Of a stretch of 43,954 bases of DNA, positions 981 to 43,934 are shown piece by piece. The stretch covers positions 1-43,954 of the forward strand of contig WFYR01000094.1 of the NCBI GenBank assembly GCA_015489955.1, given 5' to 3'. The translations under genes were made by a program, and so were the position numbers. The notes under the pieces were generated by a model. That model was not told the DNA's origin. It ran no database searches and was given only the letters and a program-made list of their open reading frames with translations. This stretch comes from Mesoaciditoga sp. GTDB lineage: Bacteria; Thermotogota; Thermotogae; Mesoaciditogales; Mesoaciditogaceae. Position 1 is the first letter of the stretch. Every line of letters begins with the position of its first letter.

Positions 981-1093
981 ATTCACATTACATCTCAACG
1001 TTACGAAGCATTTCAAAAAGAAATTAAATCTCACCCTCGAAATACTTGTCAGAACGGATCCGTTCAGGGCTTCAAAAAAAATTGCCTTGCTCG
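981..1093 (+). repeat. Dispersed intergenic element, copy A (decayed)
   Basis: This stretch aligns with the element at 8911-9045. It shares the TTACGAAGCATTTCAAAAAG block, the core AGAACGGATCCGTTC at 1051-1065, and the following GGGCTTCAAAAAAAATTG. The left terminus is degraded and the right terminus fades after about 1093. It lies between the convergent uspA-like and hutU genes. The remaining bases up to the hutU terminator (about 1094-1203) hold nothing I can identify. Confidence 0.7.
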
Positions 1094-1203
1094 CTTGGAA
1101 ATCGAGTTCTGAGATAAAAATGTTGTATTCAATGCTTGAATGTTCTCATAAAGTAATTGATACCTTTCACACTCTTCATATAGTTTCTTATTTAGGGAAT
1201 AAC

Positions 1204-1240: not shown

Positions 1241-2896
1241 TTATTTCAACATCGGAATGTCGATGCCTTTTTCTTTGGCCGTTTTTATGGCTATTTCGTA
1301 TCCCGCATCTGCGTGCCTGGCAACTCCGCTACCAGGATCGTTGTTAAGCACTCTGGAAAGTTTTTCATCTTCCAATTTTGTGCCGTCTGCCACACAAACC
1401 ATTCCAGCGTGAATTGAGTATCCTATACCAACTCCTCCGCCGTGATGGACGGAAACCCACGTCGCTCCAGATGCGGTATTCAACAAAGCGTTAAGTATTG
1501 GCCAATCGGCTATGGCATCAGAGCCGTCTTTCATGGCCTCTGTTTCCCTATATGGAGATGCTACTGAACCGGTATCATGATGATCTCTACCTATAACTAT
1601 AGGAGCTTTCAACTTGCCGTCTCTTACCATTTTGTTTATCTCGAGCCCAAATTGTTCTCTTTCACCTTGTCCAAGCCAGCAAATTCTGGCTGGTAACCCC
1701 TGCCAGTGAACTTTCTCATGGGCCATCTTTATCCATCTTTTCAGATGATCATCGTATGGGAAGAGTTTCAAAACAACTTCGTCTGTTTTGTAAATGTCTT
1801 CCGGATCGCCTGAAAGTGCTACCCATCTGAACGGACCTTTACCTTCACTGAAAAGTGGCCTTATATACTCGGGTACGTATCCAACAATTTCGAATGCGTC
1901 TTTTGCACCTTGATCGTAAGCGTTTCTTCTAATGTTATTTCCATACTCAAAAGCTTTCGCGCCCTGGCGTTGCATTTCAACCATTGCTTCTACGTGTTTG
2001 ACCATCGACTCGTACACACGTTTCAGATAGCCTTCTTTATCTTTTTCTCTCATCTCGTTTGCTTCTTCCATGGACATTCCAGCTGGAATGTAACCGTAAA
2101 GTGGGTCATGAGCGGACGTCTGATCGGTCACGATATCTGGAATGAATCCTTCTTTAACCATTCTTGGCAACACATCCGCCGCGTTTGCCAGAAGGCCTAT
2201 GGAAAGAGGTTCTCTTTTCTTTTTTGCTTCTTTTGCCATTTTCAAAGCTTCTTCGTAAGAATCCGTCCATGTATCCAAATATGCGGTTTTTAACCTTCTG
2301 TCTATCATCCTTTTATTTACTTCTACATCTATAACAACGCCATCGTTCAGCGTAACGGCCAACGGCTGTGCTCCTCCCATTTCTCCAAGACCCGCTGTAA
2401 CTGTTATAGTGCCGGCAAGCGTTCCATTAAAGTATTTTTGCGCAACGGCGTACAAGACTTCATACGTTCCTTGTAATATCCCCTGAGTTCCTATGTATAT
2501 CCAACTTCCTGCGGTCATTTGCCCAAACATTATAAGCCCTCGTTCCTCGAGTTCTCGGAAATAATCCCAATTTGCCCACTTTGGAACGAGAAGAGAATTC
2601 GCTATTAAAACACGAGGTGCCCATTCGTTAGTTTTGAAAACGGCAACCGGTTTTCCGGATTGAACTAACATGGTTTCATCCGTGTTCAGCCTCTTGAGAG
2701 TTTCAATGATGGCGTCAAACGCATCCCAATTTCTAGCAGCGCGCCCCGTTCCACCGTATACTATAAGGTGTTCCGGATCTCTTGCTACCTCTGGATCTAA
2801 GTTGTTCATTATCATTCTCATTGGAGCTTCTGTTTGCCAACTCTTACATGTGAGCTCCGTACCCCGTGGTGCCCTAACAACTCGTGGTCCTGACAT
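1241..2896 (-). CDS. hutU: Urocanate hydratase (urocanase)
   Basis: Catalyses the NAD+-dependent hydration of urocanate to imidazolonepropionate, the second step of histidine breakdown; cytosolic. It has 551 residues, the usual family length. Visible family blocks are [16 protein letters not shown] near the N-terminus, [20 protein letters not shown], the NAD site [12 protein letters not shown], the catalytic-cysteine region [14 protein letters not shown] and [19 protein letters not shown]. An ATG at 2914 is in frame but overlaps the Shine-Dalgarno AAGGAGGGAG itself. The ATG at 2896, six bases after that site, is therefore taken as the start. No hutH, hutI, hutG or ftcD is present in the window, so histidine ammonia-lyase must be encoded elsewhere. 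It is transcribed alone and ends in a strong terminator. Confidence 0.97.
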
Positions 2897-2932
2897 ATTT
2901 GCTCCCTCCTTCATGAATGAATGCTTAATTCT

Positions 2933-2938
2933 ATTCTA
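2933..2938 (-). promoter_or_regulatory. Candidate -10 box of hutU
   Basis: TAGAAT on the minus strand, 37 bases upstream of the chosen hutU start. No convincing -35 box is seen, so this is tentative. Confidence 0.4.
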
Positions 2939-2984
2939 CACCATAAAAAATAAAAAGAAAACACTTGTCGATTCATTTTAAAGC

Positions 2985-3013
2985 TTGAAAAATAAATCTT
3001 AGCGTGGTAGAAT
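2985..3013 (+). promoter_or_regulatory. Sigma-70 type promoter of the btuFCD riboswitch transcript
   Basis: TTGAAA at 2985-2990 and TAGAAT at 3008-3013 are separated by exactly 17 bp. TGG precedes the -10 (extended -10). The predicted start near 3020 coincides with the first base of the cobalamin aptamer. Confidence 0.8.
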
Positions 3014-3020
3014 AACTCTG

Positions 3021-3171
3021 AAACAGGTACGAAGAGTTTAAAAGGGAAGACCGGTGAAAATCCGGCGCGGTCCCGCCACTGTAATCGGGGACGATATCCG
3101 CACGATGCCACTGGAAAAACCGGGAAGGCGCGGATGGAGGAAGAACCGAGAGCCAGGAGACCTGCCTGTTT
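3021..3171 (+). promoter_or_regulatory. Cobalamin (AdoCbl) riboswitch aptamer
   Basis: The closing stem pairs AAACAGG (3021-3027) with CCTGTTT (3165-3171). The hallmarks are present in order: GGTGAAAATCC, GCGGTCCCGCCACTGT, GCCACTGG, and the B12 box AGCCAGGAGACCTGCC at 3151-3166. Downstream, ATACC and GGTAT segments (about 3176-3207) can form an alternative hairpin before the terminator at 3225. This suggests transcriptional control that lowers btuFCD expression when B12 is plentiful. Confidence 0.96.
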
Positions 3172-3224
3172 CCAGATACCCTCCCACTCGGAGAAAGTGT
3201 GTGGTATGGTTAAAAAGGGAAACC

Positions 3225-3256
3225 AGCCGACTAAAAAAGTCGGCTTTTTATTTTTT
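3225..3256 (+). terminator. Riboswitch-controlled terminator
   Basis: AGCCGACT-AAAAA-AGTCGGCT, an 8-bp perfect stem, followed by TTTTTATTTTTT. It lies between the aptamer and the btuF ribosome-binding site, making it the expression platform. Confidence 0.9.
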
Positions 3257-3274
3257 AAAAAAGGAGGTTTTGCT

Positions 3275-4165
3275 ATGAAAAAGTATTTGATAGTTAGTGT
3301 GATACTCGTTTTGGCGTTCACAATGCTTTTTGCCGTGCAGTACCCTTTAACGTTAGTTGACGATGCCGGACACGTAGTTACATTCAATTCGGCACCTCAA
3401 AGAGTTATCAGTGCAGCACCTTCCATAACGGATTTCTTATTGGAATTAGGATATTCCAAAAATTTGGTTGGGGTAACGAAGTATGACTCTTACACAAAGG
3501 CAACGAACATTGGCTTAATGTACCCATTGAACATGGAAAAAATTCTTTCTTTGAGACCAGATGTGGTTTTCATGTTTGGCGGATTCCAGCTTTCACAGTA
3601 CCAACGTCTTACAAAGATAGGCGTGAAAGCATTCGTTTTAAATGCAAATAATCTTGATGGAGTGTACAGAGATCTAATGGATGTGGCAACCATTATGGGA
3701 GAACCACAAAAGGGGCAAAAACTTGTGTCTGCGTTAAAAGAAAAGGTCTTAAAGATTTCAAAGGCGGCTTACAATGTGCCGATTGACAAAAGACCAAAGG
3801 TTTTTTACGGCAGCGCTGGAAAACAGATTTGGACGGCTGGAATGGGCTCTTTTTTAAATCAAATTATATCCTTAGCCGGTGGTGTTAACGTTACAGGTAA
3901 TTACGCCGGACCTAACGGATGGCTGCCTGTAAGCCCGGAATTTGTAGTTTCACAAAACCCTGACATCATATTGGTACCATACTACGCTCCAAATGGGCAA
4001 AAAGCGGCTATTAAAGCTTTTGAAAGCTATCCCGCTTTTAAAGATCTCAAAGCCGTTAAAGAAGGACATGTTTATGCTATAAATGGAAATATCGCATCGC
4101 AGCCCAACACAAAGCTCGTAGGGCTACTAGAAGAGCTTTACGATATTTTCAGCAAAGCATGGTAA
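3275..4165 (+). CDS. btuF: Cobalamin ABC transporter substrate-binding protein
   Basis: A 296-residue periplasmic or envelope-exposed binding protein of the BtuF/FepB class. A basic and hydrophobic N-terminus (about residues 1-22) is a signal sequence. No lipobox cysteine is seen, so it is either cleaved free or kept as an anchor. The motif PQRVISAAPSITDFLLELGY and the later NPDIILVPYY segment are typical of this fold. The start is fixed by the AAGGAGG site 7 bases before the ATG. The frame stays open upstream through the riboswitch, but that extension has no value. It overlaps btuC by 7 bp. The B12 riboswitch directly upstream supports corrinoid over iron-siderophore as substrate. Confidence 0.92.
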   Translation: MKKYLIVSVILVLAFTMLFAVQYPLTLVDDAGHVVTFNSAPQRVISAAPSITDFLLELGYSKNLVGVTKYDSYTKATNIGLMYPLNMEKILSLRPDVVFMFGGFQLSQYQRLTKIGVKAFVLNANNLDGVYRDLMDVATIMGEPQKGQKLVSALKEKVLKISKAAYNVPIDKRPKVFYGSAGKQIWTAGMGSFLNQIISLAGGVNVTGNYAGPNGWLPVSPEFVVSQNPDIILVPYYAPNGQKAAIKAFESYPAFKDLKAVKEGHVYAINGNIASQPNTKLVGLLEELYDIFSKAW

Positions 4166-8827: not shown

Positions 8828-8910
8828 CAAACGTAATGTTTTTATTGTTCGTGTGTACAAAGTATGTCGAAGCACAGACGAAGGTTGTGATAAACTATGG
8901 TTGTAATTTA

Positions 8911-9045
8911 CTCAACCTGTGCGTCAATGTTACAAAGCATTTCAAAAAAGAGTTAAACTTCATCTTCGAAGTACTTTTTAGAACGGATCCGTTCTGAGAG
9001 GGCTTCGAAAAAATTGTCCCTCGTAATGTTCACGCACAACATGAG
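8911..9045 (+). repeat. Dispersed intergenic element, copy B (135 bp, complete)
   Basis: The best preserved copy. The ends are inverted repeats (CTCA...TGTGCGT...TTAC against the complement of GTAA...ACGCACA...TGAG; about 19 of the first 27 positions pair). AGAACGGATCCGTTCT at 8980-8995 is a perfect 16-bp palindrome in the middle. TAATTTA flanks both ends directly (8904-8910 and 9046-9052). It lies between the divergent dciA-like and glf genes. It has no coding capacity. Confidence 0.8.
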
Positions 9046-9078
9046 TAATTTAAATCGTAAAATTTAGGAGGAAAGATC

Positions 9079-17211: not shown

Positions 17212-17324
17212 TCGACGGTGACTTATTTTACCTAAAATGACTCATCGTGTTGGTAGACACTAAAAAAGCTACGCTCTCACGGATGAGTATCTGAACGTAC
17301 CTCATATTCACTAATTTCCACAAG

Positions 17325-17367
17325 TACTTCAAAAAATTGTCTTTCGTAATATTCACGCGCAACGTAA
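17325..17367 (+). repeat. Dispersed intergenic element, copy C (right half only)
   Basis: ACTTCAAAAAATTGTCTTTCGTAATATTCACGCGCAACGTAAG-like sequence matches the right arm of copies B and D. The left arm is not recognisable. It lies between the 3' end of the ABC-2 operon and the promoter of the HhH gene. Confidence 0.65.
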
Positions 17368-17383
17368 GTTAAAAATTCAAGAG

Positions 17384-21140: not shown

Positions 21141-21292
21141 CCACGAAGGCGTGGCGTCATGAGTCTCCCGGCTTCCGGTTTCATCCTACTCCTCATGCCT
21201 TCCCGAACATTTGTCAGTGGCTTTGTTATGAGTTTCGTAGCCGGTCACGGTGGCGGGCCCGCCCTGGATTTTCACCAGAGTTCCTCGTAGAC
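21141..21292 (-). promoter_or_regulatory. Second cobalamin riboswitch, upstream of btuR
   Basis: Reading the minus strand: GGTGAAAATCC (21276-21266), GGGCCCGCCACCGTGACCGG, a GCCACTG block and the B12 box GAAGCCGGGAGACTCATG (about 21175-21158). A small hairpin CCACG-CCTT-CGTGG closes the region (21154-21141). Further downstream AGAGAGGC (about 21140-21133) could pair with GCCTCTTT (21107-21100), but the T-tract is short. It is unclear whether control is by termination or by masking the GAGGTGAT ribosome-binding site. The ends of the aptamer are approximate. Confidence 0.93.
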
Positions 21293-21360: not shown

Positions 21361-21819
21361 ATGAACAAGAAAAAGGTTTTGTTTATATGCACTCACAATT
21401 CCGCCAGTTCTCAGATGGCAGAAGGGTTTTTGAGAAGCATATATCCTGACAAATACGAAGTTGCAAGCGCTGGAACCATTGCATCCAAAGTCAATTCCTA
21501 CGCCATTAAGGCAATGGAAGAAATAGGTATAGACATTTCAAATCACCGCTCAAAGAGCATAGAAGAATTCAAGGGTGAAATATTCGATTACGTCATTACA
21601 GTATGCGATCATGCAAACGAAACGTGTCCTTTCTTTCCGGGGAAGGTTCATATACACCACAATTTTGAAGATCCAGCACAGGTAGTGGGATCAGACGAAG
21701 AAAAGATGGATGCCTTCAGGCGTGTTAGAGATGAAATAACCAAATGGATAGAAGAAAATTTCGTAAAAGAAAGTGAAAAAAATGTCGAATTACGGGTAGA
21801 AAAGGAGGGATTGTCATGA
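21361..21819 (+). CDS. ArsC-like low-molecular-weight phosphatase fold protein, P-loop Arg replaced by Ser
   Basis: 152 residues aligning end to end with thioredoxin-coupled arsenate reductases of the Staphylococcus/Bacillus type. The redox triad is retained at the canonical numbers Cys10, Cys82 and Cys89 (VCDHANETCP), and FEDPA keeps the general-acid Asp. The CX5R loop reads CTHNSAS, so the oxyanion-binding Arg16 is Ser (AGT, bases 21406-21408). That should cripple arsenate or phosphate-ester chemistry, so it may be a binding or redox protein instead. The ATG follows AAAGGAG; an in-frame TTG at 21328 is too early. It overlaps the HdeD gene by ATGA. Confidence 0.85.
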   Translation: MNKKKVLFICTHNSASSQMAEGFLRSIYPDKYEVASAGTIASKVNSYAIKAMEEIGIDISNHRSKSIEEFKGEIFDYVITVCDHANETCPFFPGKVHIHHNFEDPAQVVGSDEEKMDAFRRVRDEITKWIEENFVKESEKNVELRVEKEGLS

Positions 21820-22355
21820 TCTTCGAAAAAGAAGTCTTACAGAAATTCTCAAAACATTCAATAGTTGCTGGAATACTGATGATAATAGTTGGAACTCTTG
21901 GGATTTTAATCCCCCCAATAATGAGCCTGAGCGCGGCGGTTTTCTTTGGTAGCGTTCTCGTTACAAGTTCCATTTTCACGGCGTACGCCACTTTTAAAAG
22001 TTACAAAAAATCTCATGGTGCTTGGCTCAAATCCGTCGTGCTTTTTATAACTGGTTTGCTTATGCTTGTTTTCCCTGGAATTGGTGTTGCGGCACTGGGT
22101 ATTGTGTTTTCAGCTTACCTGTTGATCGATGCCTTTTCAAATTTCACTTTTGCATTTGATATATCCGGTTCTAAATTGAGTGCTTTGCTCGCCATATTAA
22201 ACGGCACGTTGTCCATATTCCTGGGAATTTGGATGATAATGGGATGGCCTTTCAGTTCCATATTTTGGGTTGGGTTGATCGTTGGCATAAGTTTGCTTTT
22301 CGATGGGTTTGAACTCATAATGCTGGGTTCAATTGCGAAAAAAGGAAACTTTTAA
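21816..22355 (+). CDS. HdeD-like (DUF308) membrane protein
   Basis: 179 residues with six predicted membrane spans arranged as three two-helix repeats, matching the HdeD/DUF308 family (ILMIIVGTLGILIPP; LFITGLLMLVFPGIGV; IWMIMGWPFSS). E. coli HdeD helps acid resistance; the role here is unknown. The start overlaps the ArsC-like gene in an ATGA arrangement with AAAGGAGG upstream. The stop codon abuts repeat copy D directly. Confidence 0.85.
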   Translation: MIFEKEVLQKFSKHSIVAGILMIIVGTLGILIPPIMSLSAAVFFGSVLVTSSIFTAYATFKSYKKSHGAWLKSVVLFITGLLMLVFPGIGVAALGIVFSAYLLIDAFSNFTFAFDISGSKLSALLAILNGTLSIFLGIWMIMGWPFSSIFWVGLIVGISLLFDGFELIMLGSIAKKGNF

Positions 22356-22451
22356 CTCACATTGTGCGTTAATGTTACAAGGTATTTCAAAAAGGGATTA
22401 AACCTCTCCTTCGAAAAAATTGTCCTTCGTAATGTTCAAGCACAACATGAG
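22356..22451 (+). repeat. Dispersed intergenic element, copy D (96 bp, short form)
   Basis: Both ends match copy B (CTCACATTGTGCGTTAATG at the left; the complement of CTCATGTTGTGCTTGAAC at the right) but the central palindrome is deleted. It fills almost the whole gap between the convergent HdeD and FdhD-like genes, starting at the base after one stop codon and ending 3 bases before the other. Its inverted arms may double as a bidirectional transcription barrier. Confidence 0.8.
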
Positions 22452-22454
22452 TTT

Positions 22455-23177
22455 CTAAGATTTAGAAGTCTTAATCCTTTCAAAACAAGAGTAAACGTTT
22501 GCCCTATCTTGACGTGCAAAGCCAATAAGAGTTATGCAACGTTTTTTCGATTCTTCAATTGCTCCAGCCGTAACGGCTGCTTTGGTTACGATCATTTGGA
22601 TGCCTATTTTGGCACATTTTTGAACGATTTCAAAATTCACACGCCCCGTAAAAAAAAGGGCGGGAATTTCTATTTTGCTTGAATGAGAAACCAAAAACCC
22701 AATGCACTTCTCAACAGCGCTGTGACGTGAAACATCTTCACAAATATAAGCGTACTTTCTTTCTTTCAAATCAAAAATGCCGGCTATGTGGCATCCACCG
22801 GTTTCTAAAAAAATTTCTGAAGAGCTAAGTAAATCTTCCATGCTCGTGGATATCGTTTTTATATCCACACAGTTCGCGTTGCATTTTCGTTTTGTGTTTA
22901 ACGCTTTTTTCTTAGAATCGTTTGGCTTCACTTTAACCTTTGATGTAAATATATTCACATCCACATTTGCATCACTTATGAGTCCCTTACAATAAAGGTA
23001 TCCAACAGCCAGATATTTAAGTTCTTTTGGCGTGCACGAAATCGTACCAACGGTATTTTCGTTAAAGAGTATTTCGATCATCTTCTCTTCGATGACGGAG
23101 TCTTTCATCTTTTTAGATCCTTTTTCATCTATCCTTAAGATTTCCGTTTTTCTCATCATTTTAATCACTTCGCACAT
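22455..23177 (-). CDS. FdhD-like sulfurtransferase family protein, atypical
   Basis: 240 residues matching FdhD in order: an early VGTISCTPKELKYLAVGYLYCKGLI, a middle FLETGGCHIAGIFD, EDVSRHSAVEKCIGF (family DVGRHNAVDK), FFTGRVNFEIVQKCAKIG and the tail ITLIGFARQDRANVYS. FdhD passes sulfur to the Mo/W-bisPGD cofactor of formate dehydrogenases. The conserved CGxCG pair is replaced by Cys99 and Cys103 in a CX3C spacing. Several FdhD residues differ, and no formate dehydrogenase is nearby. It may serve another Mo/W enzyme. The start is uncertain: ATG at 23177, 23159 or 23156, all with weak ribosome-binding sites. Confidence 0.75.
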   Translation of the reverse strand: MCEVIKMMRKTEILRIDEKGSKKMKDSVIEEKMIEILFNENTVGTISCTPKELKYLAVGYLYCKGLISDANVDVNIFTSKVKVKPNDSKKKALNTKRKCNANCVDIKTISTSMEDLLSSSEIFLETGGCHIAGIFDLKERKYAYICEDVSRHSAVEKCIGFLVSHSSKIEIPALFFTGRVNFEIVQKCAKIGIQMIVTKAAVTAGAIEESKKRCITLIGFARQDRANVYSCFERIKTSKS

Positions 23178-24831: not shown

Positions 24832-24929
24832 ATATCATTGCTTGAACATTATGAAGGACAATTTTTTCGAAGTCCTGTCAGATTCGATTCCCTTTTGAAA
24901 TACTTTGTAACATCAACGCGCAGATTGAA
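24832..24929 (-). repeat. Dispersed intergenic element, copy E (inverted, internally deleted)
   Basis: Matches copy B in reverse orientation: CTTGAACATTATGAAGGAC at the left and CTTTGTAACATCAACGCGCAG at the right, with GAAGTCCTGTCAGA retained next to a shortened core that has lost most of the palindrome. It lies in the 382-bp divergent gap between marR and the dehydrogenase operon. Outside it that gap holds only the marR control region, a short inverted repeat AACATT/AATGTT at 24997-25014 and a -10 box. Confidence 0.75.
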
Positions 24930-43815: not shown

Positions 43816-43934
43816 CCCGGGCGATAACCTACTCTCACAAGGGGCTACCCCCTCACTACCATCGGCCCGCGGTGGCTTAACGGCCGTATTCGGAATGGGA
43901 ACGGGTGTTTCCCACCACGGTATCCTCACCCGGG
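43816..43934 (-). rRNA. rrf: 5S ribosomal RNA
   Basis: About 119 nt. The ends CCCGGGTGA and TCGCCCGGG pair to form helix I. The middle has the universal CCCGTTCCCATTCCGAA-type loop and ACGGCCGTTAAGCC, then GATGGTAGTGAGGGGG and GAGAGTAGG. It is transcribed leftwards. The 20 bases beyond it to the window edge are probably the 23S-5S spacer. Confidence 0.97.

What the first reader, a model, noticed from the sequence alone, without database searches (positions are those of the whole stretch)
8911..9045. A dispersed, non-coding element family with terminal inverted repeats, five copies in 44 kb
Copies at 981-1093 (A), 8911-9045 (B), 17325-17367 (C, half), 22356-22451 (D) and 24832-24929 (E, inverted) share the same end and arm sequences and all lie between genes. 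B and A carry the core AGAACGGATCCGTTC(T), a 16-bp palindrome in B; D and E have lost it. Inverted ends, length variation by internal deletion and intergenic placement fit a MITE- or REP-like element moved by a transposase encoded elsewhere. No transposase gene was seen in this window. A mobilised structured RNA is another possibility.
Basis: seen in the sequence. Interest (0 to 1): 0.72.

Follow-up and report, generated by a model that had tools for sequence, protein, structure and literature searches.

The report
Transposon-borne twin-hairpin RNA family
The five repeats are worn-down copies of a small jumping DNA element whose intact relatives carry a conserved RNA structure resembling binding sites for the global regulator CsrA, so a jumping element appears to be spreading a possible regulatory RNA through the genomes of these bacteria.

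Summary
The five copies belong to a non-autonomous transposon (MITE) family of Mesoaciditogaceae (Thermotogota), with termini CTCA(N3)TGTGCGT...ACGCACA(N3)TGAG and 7-bp target duplications (B: TAATTTA on both sides; exact in 21 of 54 copies, shuffled mean 0.55). The window's genome gives 38 blastn matches; a sister species has 84 left-end sites and many ~360-bp copies. Insertion sequences with the same kind of ends and an IS4/IS701-like DDE transposase exist in the family, including the window's own genome, and three intact relatives in other Thermotogota make 7-bp duplications. Intact elements carry a ~152-nt core: a three-way-junction RNA in which 25 of 41 pairs show compensatory changes across three genera. 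It is homologous to Rfam TwoAYGGAY (RF01731), earlier proposed to bind CsrA; both hairpin loops hold GGA and the genome encodes CsrA. Window copies A, B, D and E lack the core (its loss in place is shown for D); C keeps a remnant. Mobility and RNA structure are shown; the mobilising enzyme, transcription and CsrA binding are inferred. I found no description of a MITE carrying such an RNA: a new variant of a known kind.

The parts
981..1150 (+). Copy A: eroded element, core lost, long right arm partly kept; outer right end not recognisable
   Evidence: blastn to full-length element at 995-1055 and 1051-1150; alignment
8904..8910 (.). Left target duplication of copy B, TAATTTA
8911..9045 (+). 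Copy B: 135-bp MITE with intact ends CTCAACCTGTGCGT...ACGCACAACATGAG, core lost
8980..8995 (.). Palindrome AGAACGGATCCGTTCT: remains of the core's basal helix after deletion
   Evidence: sequence compared with full-length element; interpretation inferred
9046..9052 (.). Right target duplication of copy B, TAATTTA
17252..17368 (+). Copy C: right arm (17327-17368) plus a degenerate remnant of the RNA core (about 17252-17308, second hairpin CTCACGGATGAG still readable)
   Evidence: blastn, covariance model 12.9 bits E=0.11
22349..22355 (.). Left target duplication of copy D, CTTTTAA (decayed); includes the stop codon of the upstream ORF 21816-22355
22356..22451 (+). Copy D: 96-bp form; the orthologous copy in the sister species is 267 bp and has the core
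22452..22458 (.). Right target duplication of copy D, TTTCTAA
24832..24929 (-). Copy E: eroded ends, core lost

Best explanation
The repeats are copies of a non-autonomous DNA transposon (MITE) that, when intact, carries a TwoAYGGAY-type structured RNA. Shown here: (1) the element has CTCA(N3)TGTGCGT terminal inverted repeats and 7-bp target duplications; (2) insertion sequences with the same kind of ends and DDE transposases of an IS4/IS701-like group exist in the family and in the window's own genome, and intact relatives in other Thermotogota make 7-bp duplications; (3) intact elements of about 265-370 bp contain a ~152-nt core that folds as a three-way junction with two hairpins and keeps its helices by compensatory changes across three genera; (4) at two sites shared with the sister species the core has been lost by internal deletion, giving the short form. 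Inferred: those transposases move the MITE in trans; the core is transcribed; its two hairpins (ACA(N)GGAYGU and a hairpin with an AYGGAY loop) bind the CsrA dimer, as a decoy or as a site in whatever transcript the element lies in. Window copies A, B, D and E no longer have the core and are probably remnants without that function.
For: Copies: 38 in own genome, 50 in sister species, 84 against 0 control end sites in G001. Duplications: exact 7 bp in 21 of 54, shuffled mean 0.55, maximum 4. Empty site and in-place core loss. Transposases with matching ends and 7-bp duplications AAATATA, TATTTAT, TTAACTA in three intact relatives. RNA: 25 of 41 pairs with double changes; 95.6% paired against 84.0% shuffled, covariation 0.399 against 0.182 shuffled and at most 0.085 slid. 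Homology to TwoAYGGAY: blastn to family-f7 loci, which match RF01731; the model of Mesoaciditogaceae cores hits RF01731 loci it was not built from. CsrA link: proposed for TwoAYGGAY in PMC4333381; GGA in 53 of 58 first loops; consensus RUACARGGAUGU; CsrA gene in own genome.
Against: No expression or binding data. RF01731 itself does not score the Mesoaciditogaceae core. No strand preference of cores beside co-directional genes, 8 against 7. Some cores lack recognisable MITE ends. The closest parental IS is decayed in the own genome, and no intact IS with both flanks was available inside the family, so the 7-bp duplication is shown only for IS with ~40% identical transposases.
Confidence: 0.8

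Rival explanations
1. An ordinary MITE whose core is a passenger or works only as DNA (cruciform or hairpin used in transposition or replication); no RNA function.
For: No strand preference; short forms without core are common and keep intact duplications, e.g. B; core lost without visible replacement.
Against: Conserved unpaired motifs (GGA in both loops, linker GAGAAAGCGAA) as well as compensated helices; relatives of the core in other families in elements with other ends and in Rfam TwoAYGGAY.
Confidence: 0.3
2. A conserved regulatory RNA at fixed, vertically inherited positions; the inverted repeats are only RNA stems.
For: Copy D is at the same site in the sister species.
Against: 7-bp target duplications, an empty orthologous site, dozens of dispersed copies and transposase-bearing elements with the same ends.
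Confidence: 0.02
3. A mobile element with a structured RNA of another kind: a guide or bridge RNA for an RNA-guided transposase or nuclease.
For: Structured RNA inside a mobile element; core also found outside MITE ends.
Against: The linked transposases are DDE_Tnp_1; I saw no variable guide segment in the core alignment; the layout matches TwoAYGGAY. Nuclease partners were not searched for.
Confidence: 0.04
4. REP-type palindromes moved by a RAYT (TnpA-REP) transposase.
For: Short palindromic intergenic repeats.
Against: Long terminal inverted repeats, 7-bp duplications and DDE IS partners with the same ends. RAYT genes were not searched for.
Confidence: 0.01

Closest known systems
TwoAYGGAY RNA (Rfam RF01731; Weinberg 2010, PMC2864571)
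   Same: Two neighbouring hairpins with GGA loops, the second carrying GA/GA mismatches, closed by a longer basal stem; the model from Mesoaciditogaceae cores hits RF01731 loci.
   Different: The Mesoaciditogaceae core is not scored by RF01731 and sits inside a MITE. PMC2864571 lists TwoAYGGAY from human gut, gamma-Proteobacteria and Clostridiales.
CsrA-sequestering sRNAs CsrB/CsrC, RsmX/Y/Z
   Same: GGA motifs in hairpin loops, more than one per molecule.
   Different: Those are dedicated sRNA genes; here the unit is dispersed by a transposon. Binding is not shown.
Bacterial MITEs such as bcr1 of the Bacillus cereus group
   Same: Non-coding intergenic repeats, MITE-like, often within transcripts for bcr1-bcr3; bcr10 and bcr18 have conserved RNA structures (PMC3446304).
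   Different: Different sequence and host; here the cargo is related to a known Rfam family and a transposase group with the same ends is identified.
IS4/IS701-like DDE insertion sequences
   Same: DDE_Tnp_1 transposase with a Y-2-R-3-E-6-K motif (by inspection), inverted ends like those of the MITE.
   Different: All NCBIfam IS4/IS701 models score below their curated cut-offs; 7-bp duplications, whereas IS701 members are recalled to make 4 bp.

Membership tests
MITE (non-autonomous DNA transposon) | Terminal inverted repeats | tested here: met
   CTCA(N3)TGTGCGT / ACGCACA(N3)TGAG in 54+ copies
MITE (non-autonomous DNA transposon) | Target-site duplication of constant length | tested here: met
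   Exact 7 bp in 21 of 54, shuffled mean 0.55
MITE (non-autonomous DNA transposon) | Presence/absence at orthologous sites | tested here: met
   G001:C20 copy absent at G000:C114; one site only
MITE (non-autonomous DNA transposon) | Autonomous element with the same ends | tested here: met
   Deleted IS L088 and decayed IS L131 share both end types or one end; intact relatives make 7-bp duplications
MITE (non-autonomous DNA transposon) | Mobilised in trans by that transposase | not testable with these tools
   Needs a transposition assay
TwoAYGGAY (RF01731) | Score above Rfam gathering threshold | tested here: not met
   No hit for Mesoaciditogaceae cores even at E<=10; met only by relatives in family f7
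TwoAYGGAY (RF01731) | Two adjacent hairpins with GGA-type loops, GA/GA mismatches in the second, closed by a basal stem | tested here: met
   Consensus structure and alignment; mismatch by inspection
TwoAYGGAY (RF01731) | Homology to known members | tested here: met
   Model R1 hits RF01731 loci L187:1805-1950 (37.7 bits) and L211:1500-1649 (36 bits)
CsrA-binding RNA | GGA in hairpin loops in pairs | tested here: met
   53 of 58 first loops, 56 of 58 with GGA in the second region
CsrA-binding RNA | CsrA encoded in the genome | tested here: met
   PF02599 at G000:C6:2276-2431, E=2.9e-22
CsrA-binding RNA | Binds CsrA and is expressed | not testable with these tools
   Needs binding and RNA data
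IS4 or IS701 family (partner transposase) | Score above the curated NCBIfam cut-off | tested here: not met
   Best 132.5 bits against 250; Pfam DDE_Tnp_1 is above its cut-off
REP element | RAYT transposase partner and GTAG or CGTC tag | not tested
   Not searched; disfavoured by long inverted repeats and 7-bp duplications

The most novel reading that the evidence does not exclude
A transposon family spreads CsrA-binding twin-hairpin RNA units through the genome, so that each transposition adds a CsrA decoy or a CsrA-responsive site to a new transcript and a mobile element rewires the Csr network.
Probability: 0.33. Interest if true: 0.82.

Novelty: new variant of a known kind. Interest (0 to 1): 0.62.

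Why it matters
TwoAYGGAY has been an RNA family of unknown function; a CsrA role was proposed only from motif matches. Finding a relative in tens of copies on a DDE-type MITE, with a candidate transposase group, explains how such an RNA can become multicopy. If CsrA binds it, transposition would directly change the number of CsrA sites in the cell, which can be tested. For the window itself the copies are ordinary remnants.

Tried and rejected
Rfam scans of the window and of element loci gave no credible known RNA on the Mesoaciditogaceae element. A 1847-bp IS in nine near-identical copies of G007 contains TGTGCGTCAAGGTTAC about 125 bp inside one end, not at its ends, and has a transposase resembling IS1634 by eye (Pfam DDE_Tnp_1): rejected as the parent. 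Copies B and E could not be tested for empty sites because the two species are rearranged there. The flanks of the 600-bp deleted IS L088 and of the G003:C68 IS show no matching duplication by eye: treated as decayed or composite. The genome-collection search with the C43 transposase gave one named relative. A strand bias of cores towards neighbouring genes was looked for and not found. Literature on MITEs with CsrA sites or MITEs in Thermotogota: nothing relevant found. Folding of eroded copies A and E alone gave no signal above shuffles.

Full report
WHERE. The window is contig 94 of a 1.77-Mb draft genome in 120 contigs. G001 is the only other species of the window's genus among the genomes searched.

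THE OBSERVATION. The five copies are real, with corrected limits: A 981 to about 1150, B 8911-9045, C 17252-17368, D 22356-22451, E about 24839-24928. B has perfect 7-bp flanking repeats, TAATTTA.

IT IS A MOBILE ELEMENT. The own genome has 38 blastn matches to B and G001 has 50, among them many elements of about 360 bp. The left-end pattern TGTGCGTNAATGTTAC with up to one mismatch occurs 84 times in G001 and 12 times in G000, and the backwards control 0 times in both. Of 54 distinct copies with both ends, 21 have an exact 7-bp duplication (shuffled mean 0.55, maximum 4 in 500 shuffles); the signal is far weaker at 4, 5, 6, 8 and 9 bp. The duplications are A+T-rich and usually begin with T and end with A. 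One G001 copy (C20, 361 bp) is absent at the orthologous place in G000 (C114), where both flanks align.

THE SHORT FORMS ARE DELETION DERIVATIVES. Window copy D (96 bp) and a G001 copy of 267 bp share one site and flanks; the window copy lacks the internal core, apparently lost between short TCGAA repeats. The 138-bp copy at G000:C23 and the 358-bp copy at G001:C21 show the same at another shared site, with a further deletion in the right arm. Deletion end points differ between copies. The palindrome in B is read as what is left of the core's basal helix.

THE ENZYME. G003 carries a ~600-bp deleted insertion sequence with the element's ends and the remnant of a DDE_Tnp_1 transposase. The own genome carries an 86%-identical transposase (G000:C43) with the end CTCACCCTGTGCGTGAACATTACGAAATATG, but its N-terminal part is decayed and another MITE has inserted. 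The MITE's right end resembles the IS end downstream of the transposase and its left end the end upstream (sequence comparison). A related IS group (386-aa transposase) has several copies or ends in the own genome, including C-terminal ends on four contigs, and several contig-end copies in G001. In more distant Thermotogota three intact copies of related IS (1338, 1338 and 1366 bp; transposases about 40% identical to the G000 group) have ends of the same design and 7-bp duplications AAATATA, TATTTAT and TTAACTA. That such enzymes move the MITE is inferred from shared ends and shared duplication length. NCBIfam IS4 and IS701 models are hit only below their cut-offs.

THE CARGO. Intact elements contain a ~152-nt core that folds as a three-way junction. 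On 26 cores from genera g1, g3 and g4 RNAalifold predicts 41 pairs, 25 of them with compensatory double changes. Counting pairs for that structure: 95.6% of cells paired against 84.0% after shuffling (0 of 500 shuffles as high), covariation score 0.399 against 0.182, and at most 0.085 when partners are slid by 1-3 columns. The structure was derived from the same alignment, so the slid control is favourable to it; the number of double changes is nevertheless large. A second core subfamily has recoded helices but keeps the loop motif and the linker GAGAAAGCGAA.

WHAT THE CORE IS. By blastn the core matches loci in family f7 (E down to 6.5e-10). Loci of that genus match Rfam RF01731 TwoAYGGAY, several above the cut-off. 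In reverse, the model built only from Mesoaciditogaceae cores hits RF01731 loci that were not used to build it (37.7 and 36 bits). The Rfam model does not score the Mesoaciditogaceae core itself, so it is called TwoAYGGAY-like. PMC4333381 proposed that TwoAYGGAY binds CsrA. The loops here read ACA-GGAY-GU, ACAYGGAYGU and CUCAYGGAYGAG; the CsrA consensus is RUACARGGAUGU, preferred with GGA in a hairpin loop (PMC4347634). GGA is kept in 53 of 58 first loops. The own genome encodes CsrA.

WHAT IS NOT SHOWN. There are no transcription or binding data. Copies lie between genes (0 of 45 inside an ORF by a simple ORF criterion), but cores show no strand preference beside co-directional genes (8 against 7). 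That argues against a general leader role and is compatible with a decoy, a neutral cargo or site-by-site effects. Some cores in G000 lack recognisable MITE ends, so the RNA may also exist outside the transposon.

VERDICT. In the window the element is a set of worn remnants. The interesting object is the intact element in relatives: a DDE-type MITE with a TwoAYGGAY-like, possibly CsrA-binding, RNA as cargo.

Noticed in passing
window 3008-3183 (+) and 21161-21286 (-): Two cobalamin riboswitches (RF00174, 122.8 and 69.4 bits).
   Followed up: no
window 43816-43933 (-): 5S rRNA gene at the end of the contig (86 bits).
   Followed up: no
window copies B (8911-9045) and E (24832-24929) against G001: Both copies lie at synteny breakpoints between the two species: the sequence on either side of each copy matches different G001 contigs. 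The repeats may mediate rearrangement.
   Followed up: partly
L190, L197, L202, L208 (G000 contigs 114, 117, 62, 44): Cores without recognisable MITE ends; by eye, in L190, L197 and L202 a terminator-like hairpin follows within about 100 bases.
   Followed up: partly
L208 about 1454-1604, L168 about 1065-1216: Chimeric cores that join the 5' half of one core subfamily to the 3' half of another, as if recombined.
   Followed up: no
L085 about 2994-3712 and L098 about 2358-3024 (G006, genus g4): Larger elements of about 670-720 bp without a clear transposase gene, with related ends CTCACAATGTGCGTGAATGTAAC and by eye 7-bp duplications TTGAAAC and GTTGTTA.
   Followed up: partly
L131 about 2550-2866 (G000 contig 43): A second kind of MITE (about 307 bp, ends with TTAAGTAATTAA-like inner sequence) inserted in the decayed group-1 transposase gene.
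   Followed up: partly
L070-L078 (G007): A 1847-bp insertion sequence in nine near-identical copies, transposase with DUF4277 and DDE_Tnp_1 domains.
   Followed up: partly
L002 1751-1812 (+) and 1369-1429 (-), G000 contig 66: Two fluoride riboswitches on either side of one element copy.
   Followed up: no
G057, G058, G060, G015, G037 (family f7, genus g10): TwoAYGGAY RF01731 is itself dispersed and multicopy here, up to 19 matches in one genome, in loci with other ends by eye.
   Followed up: partly
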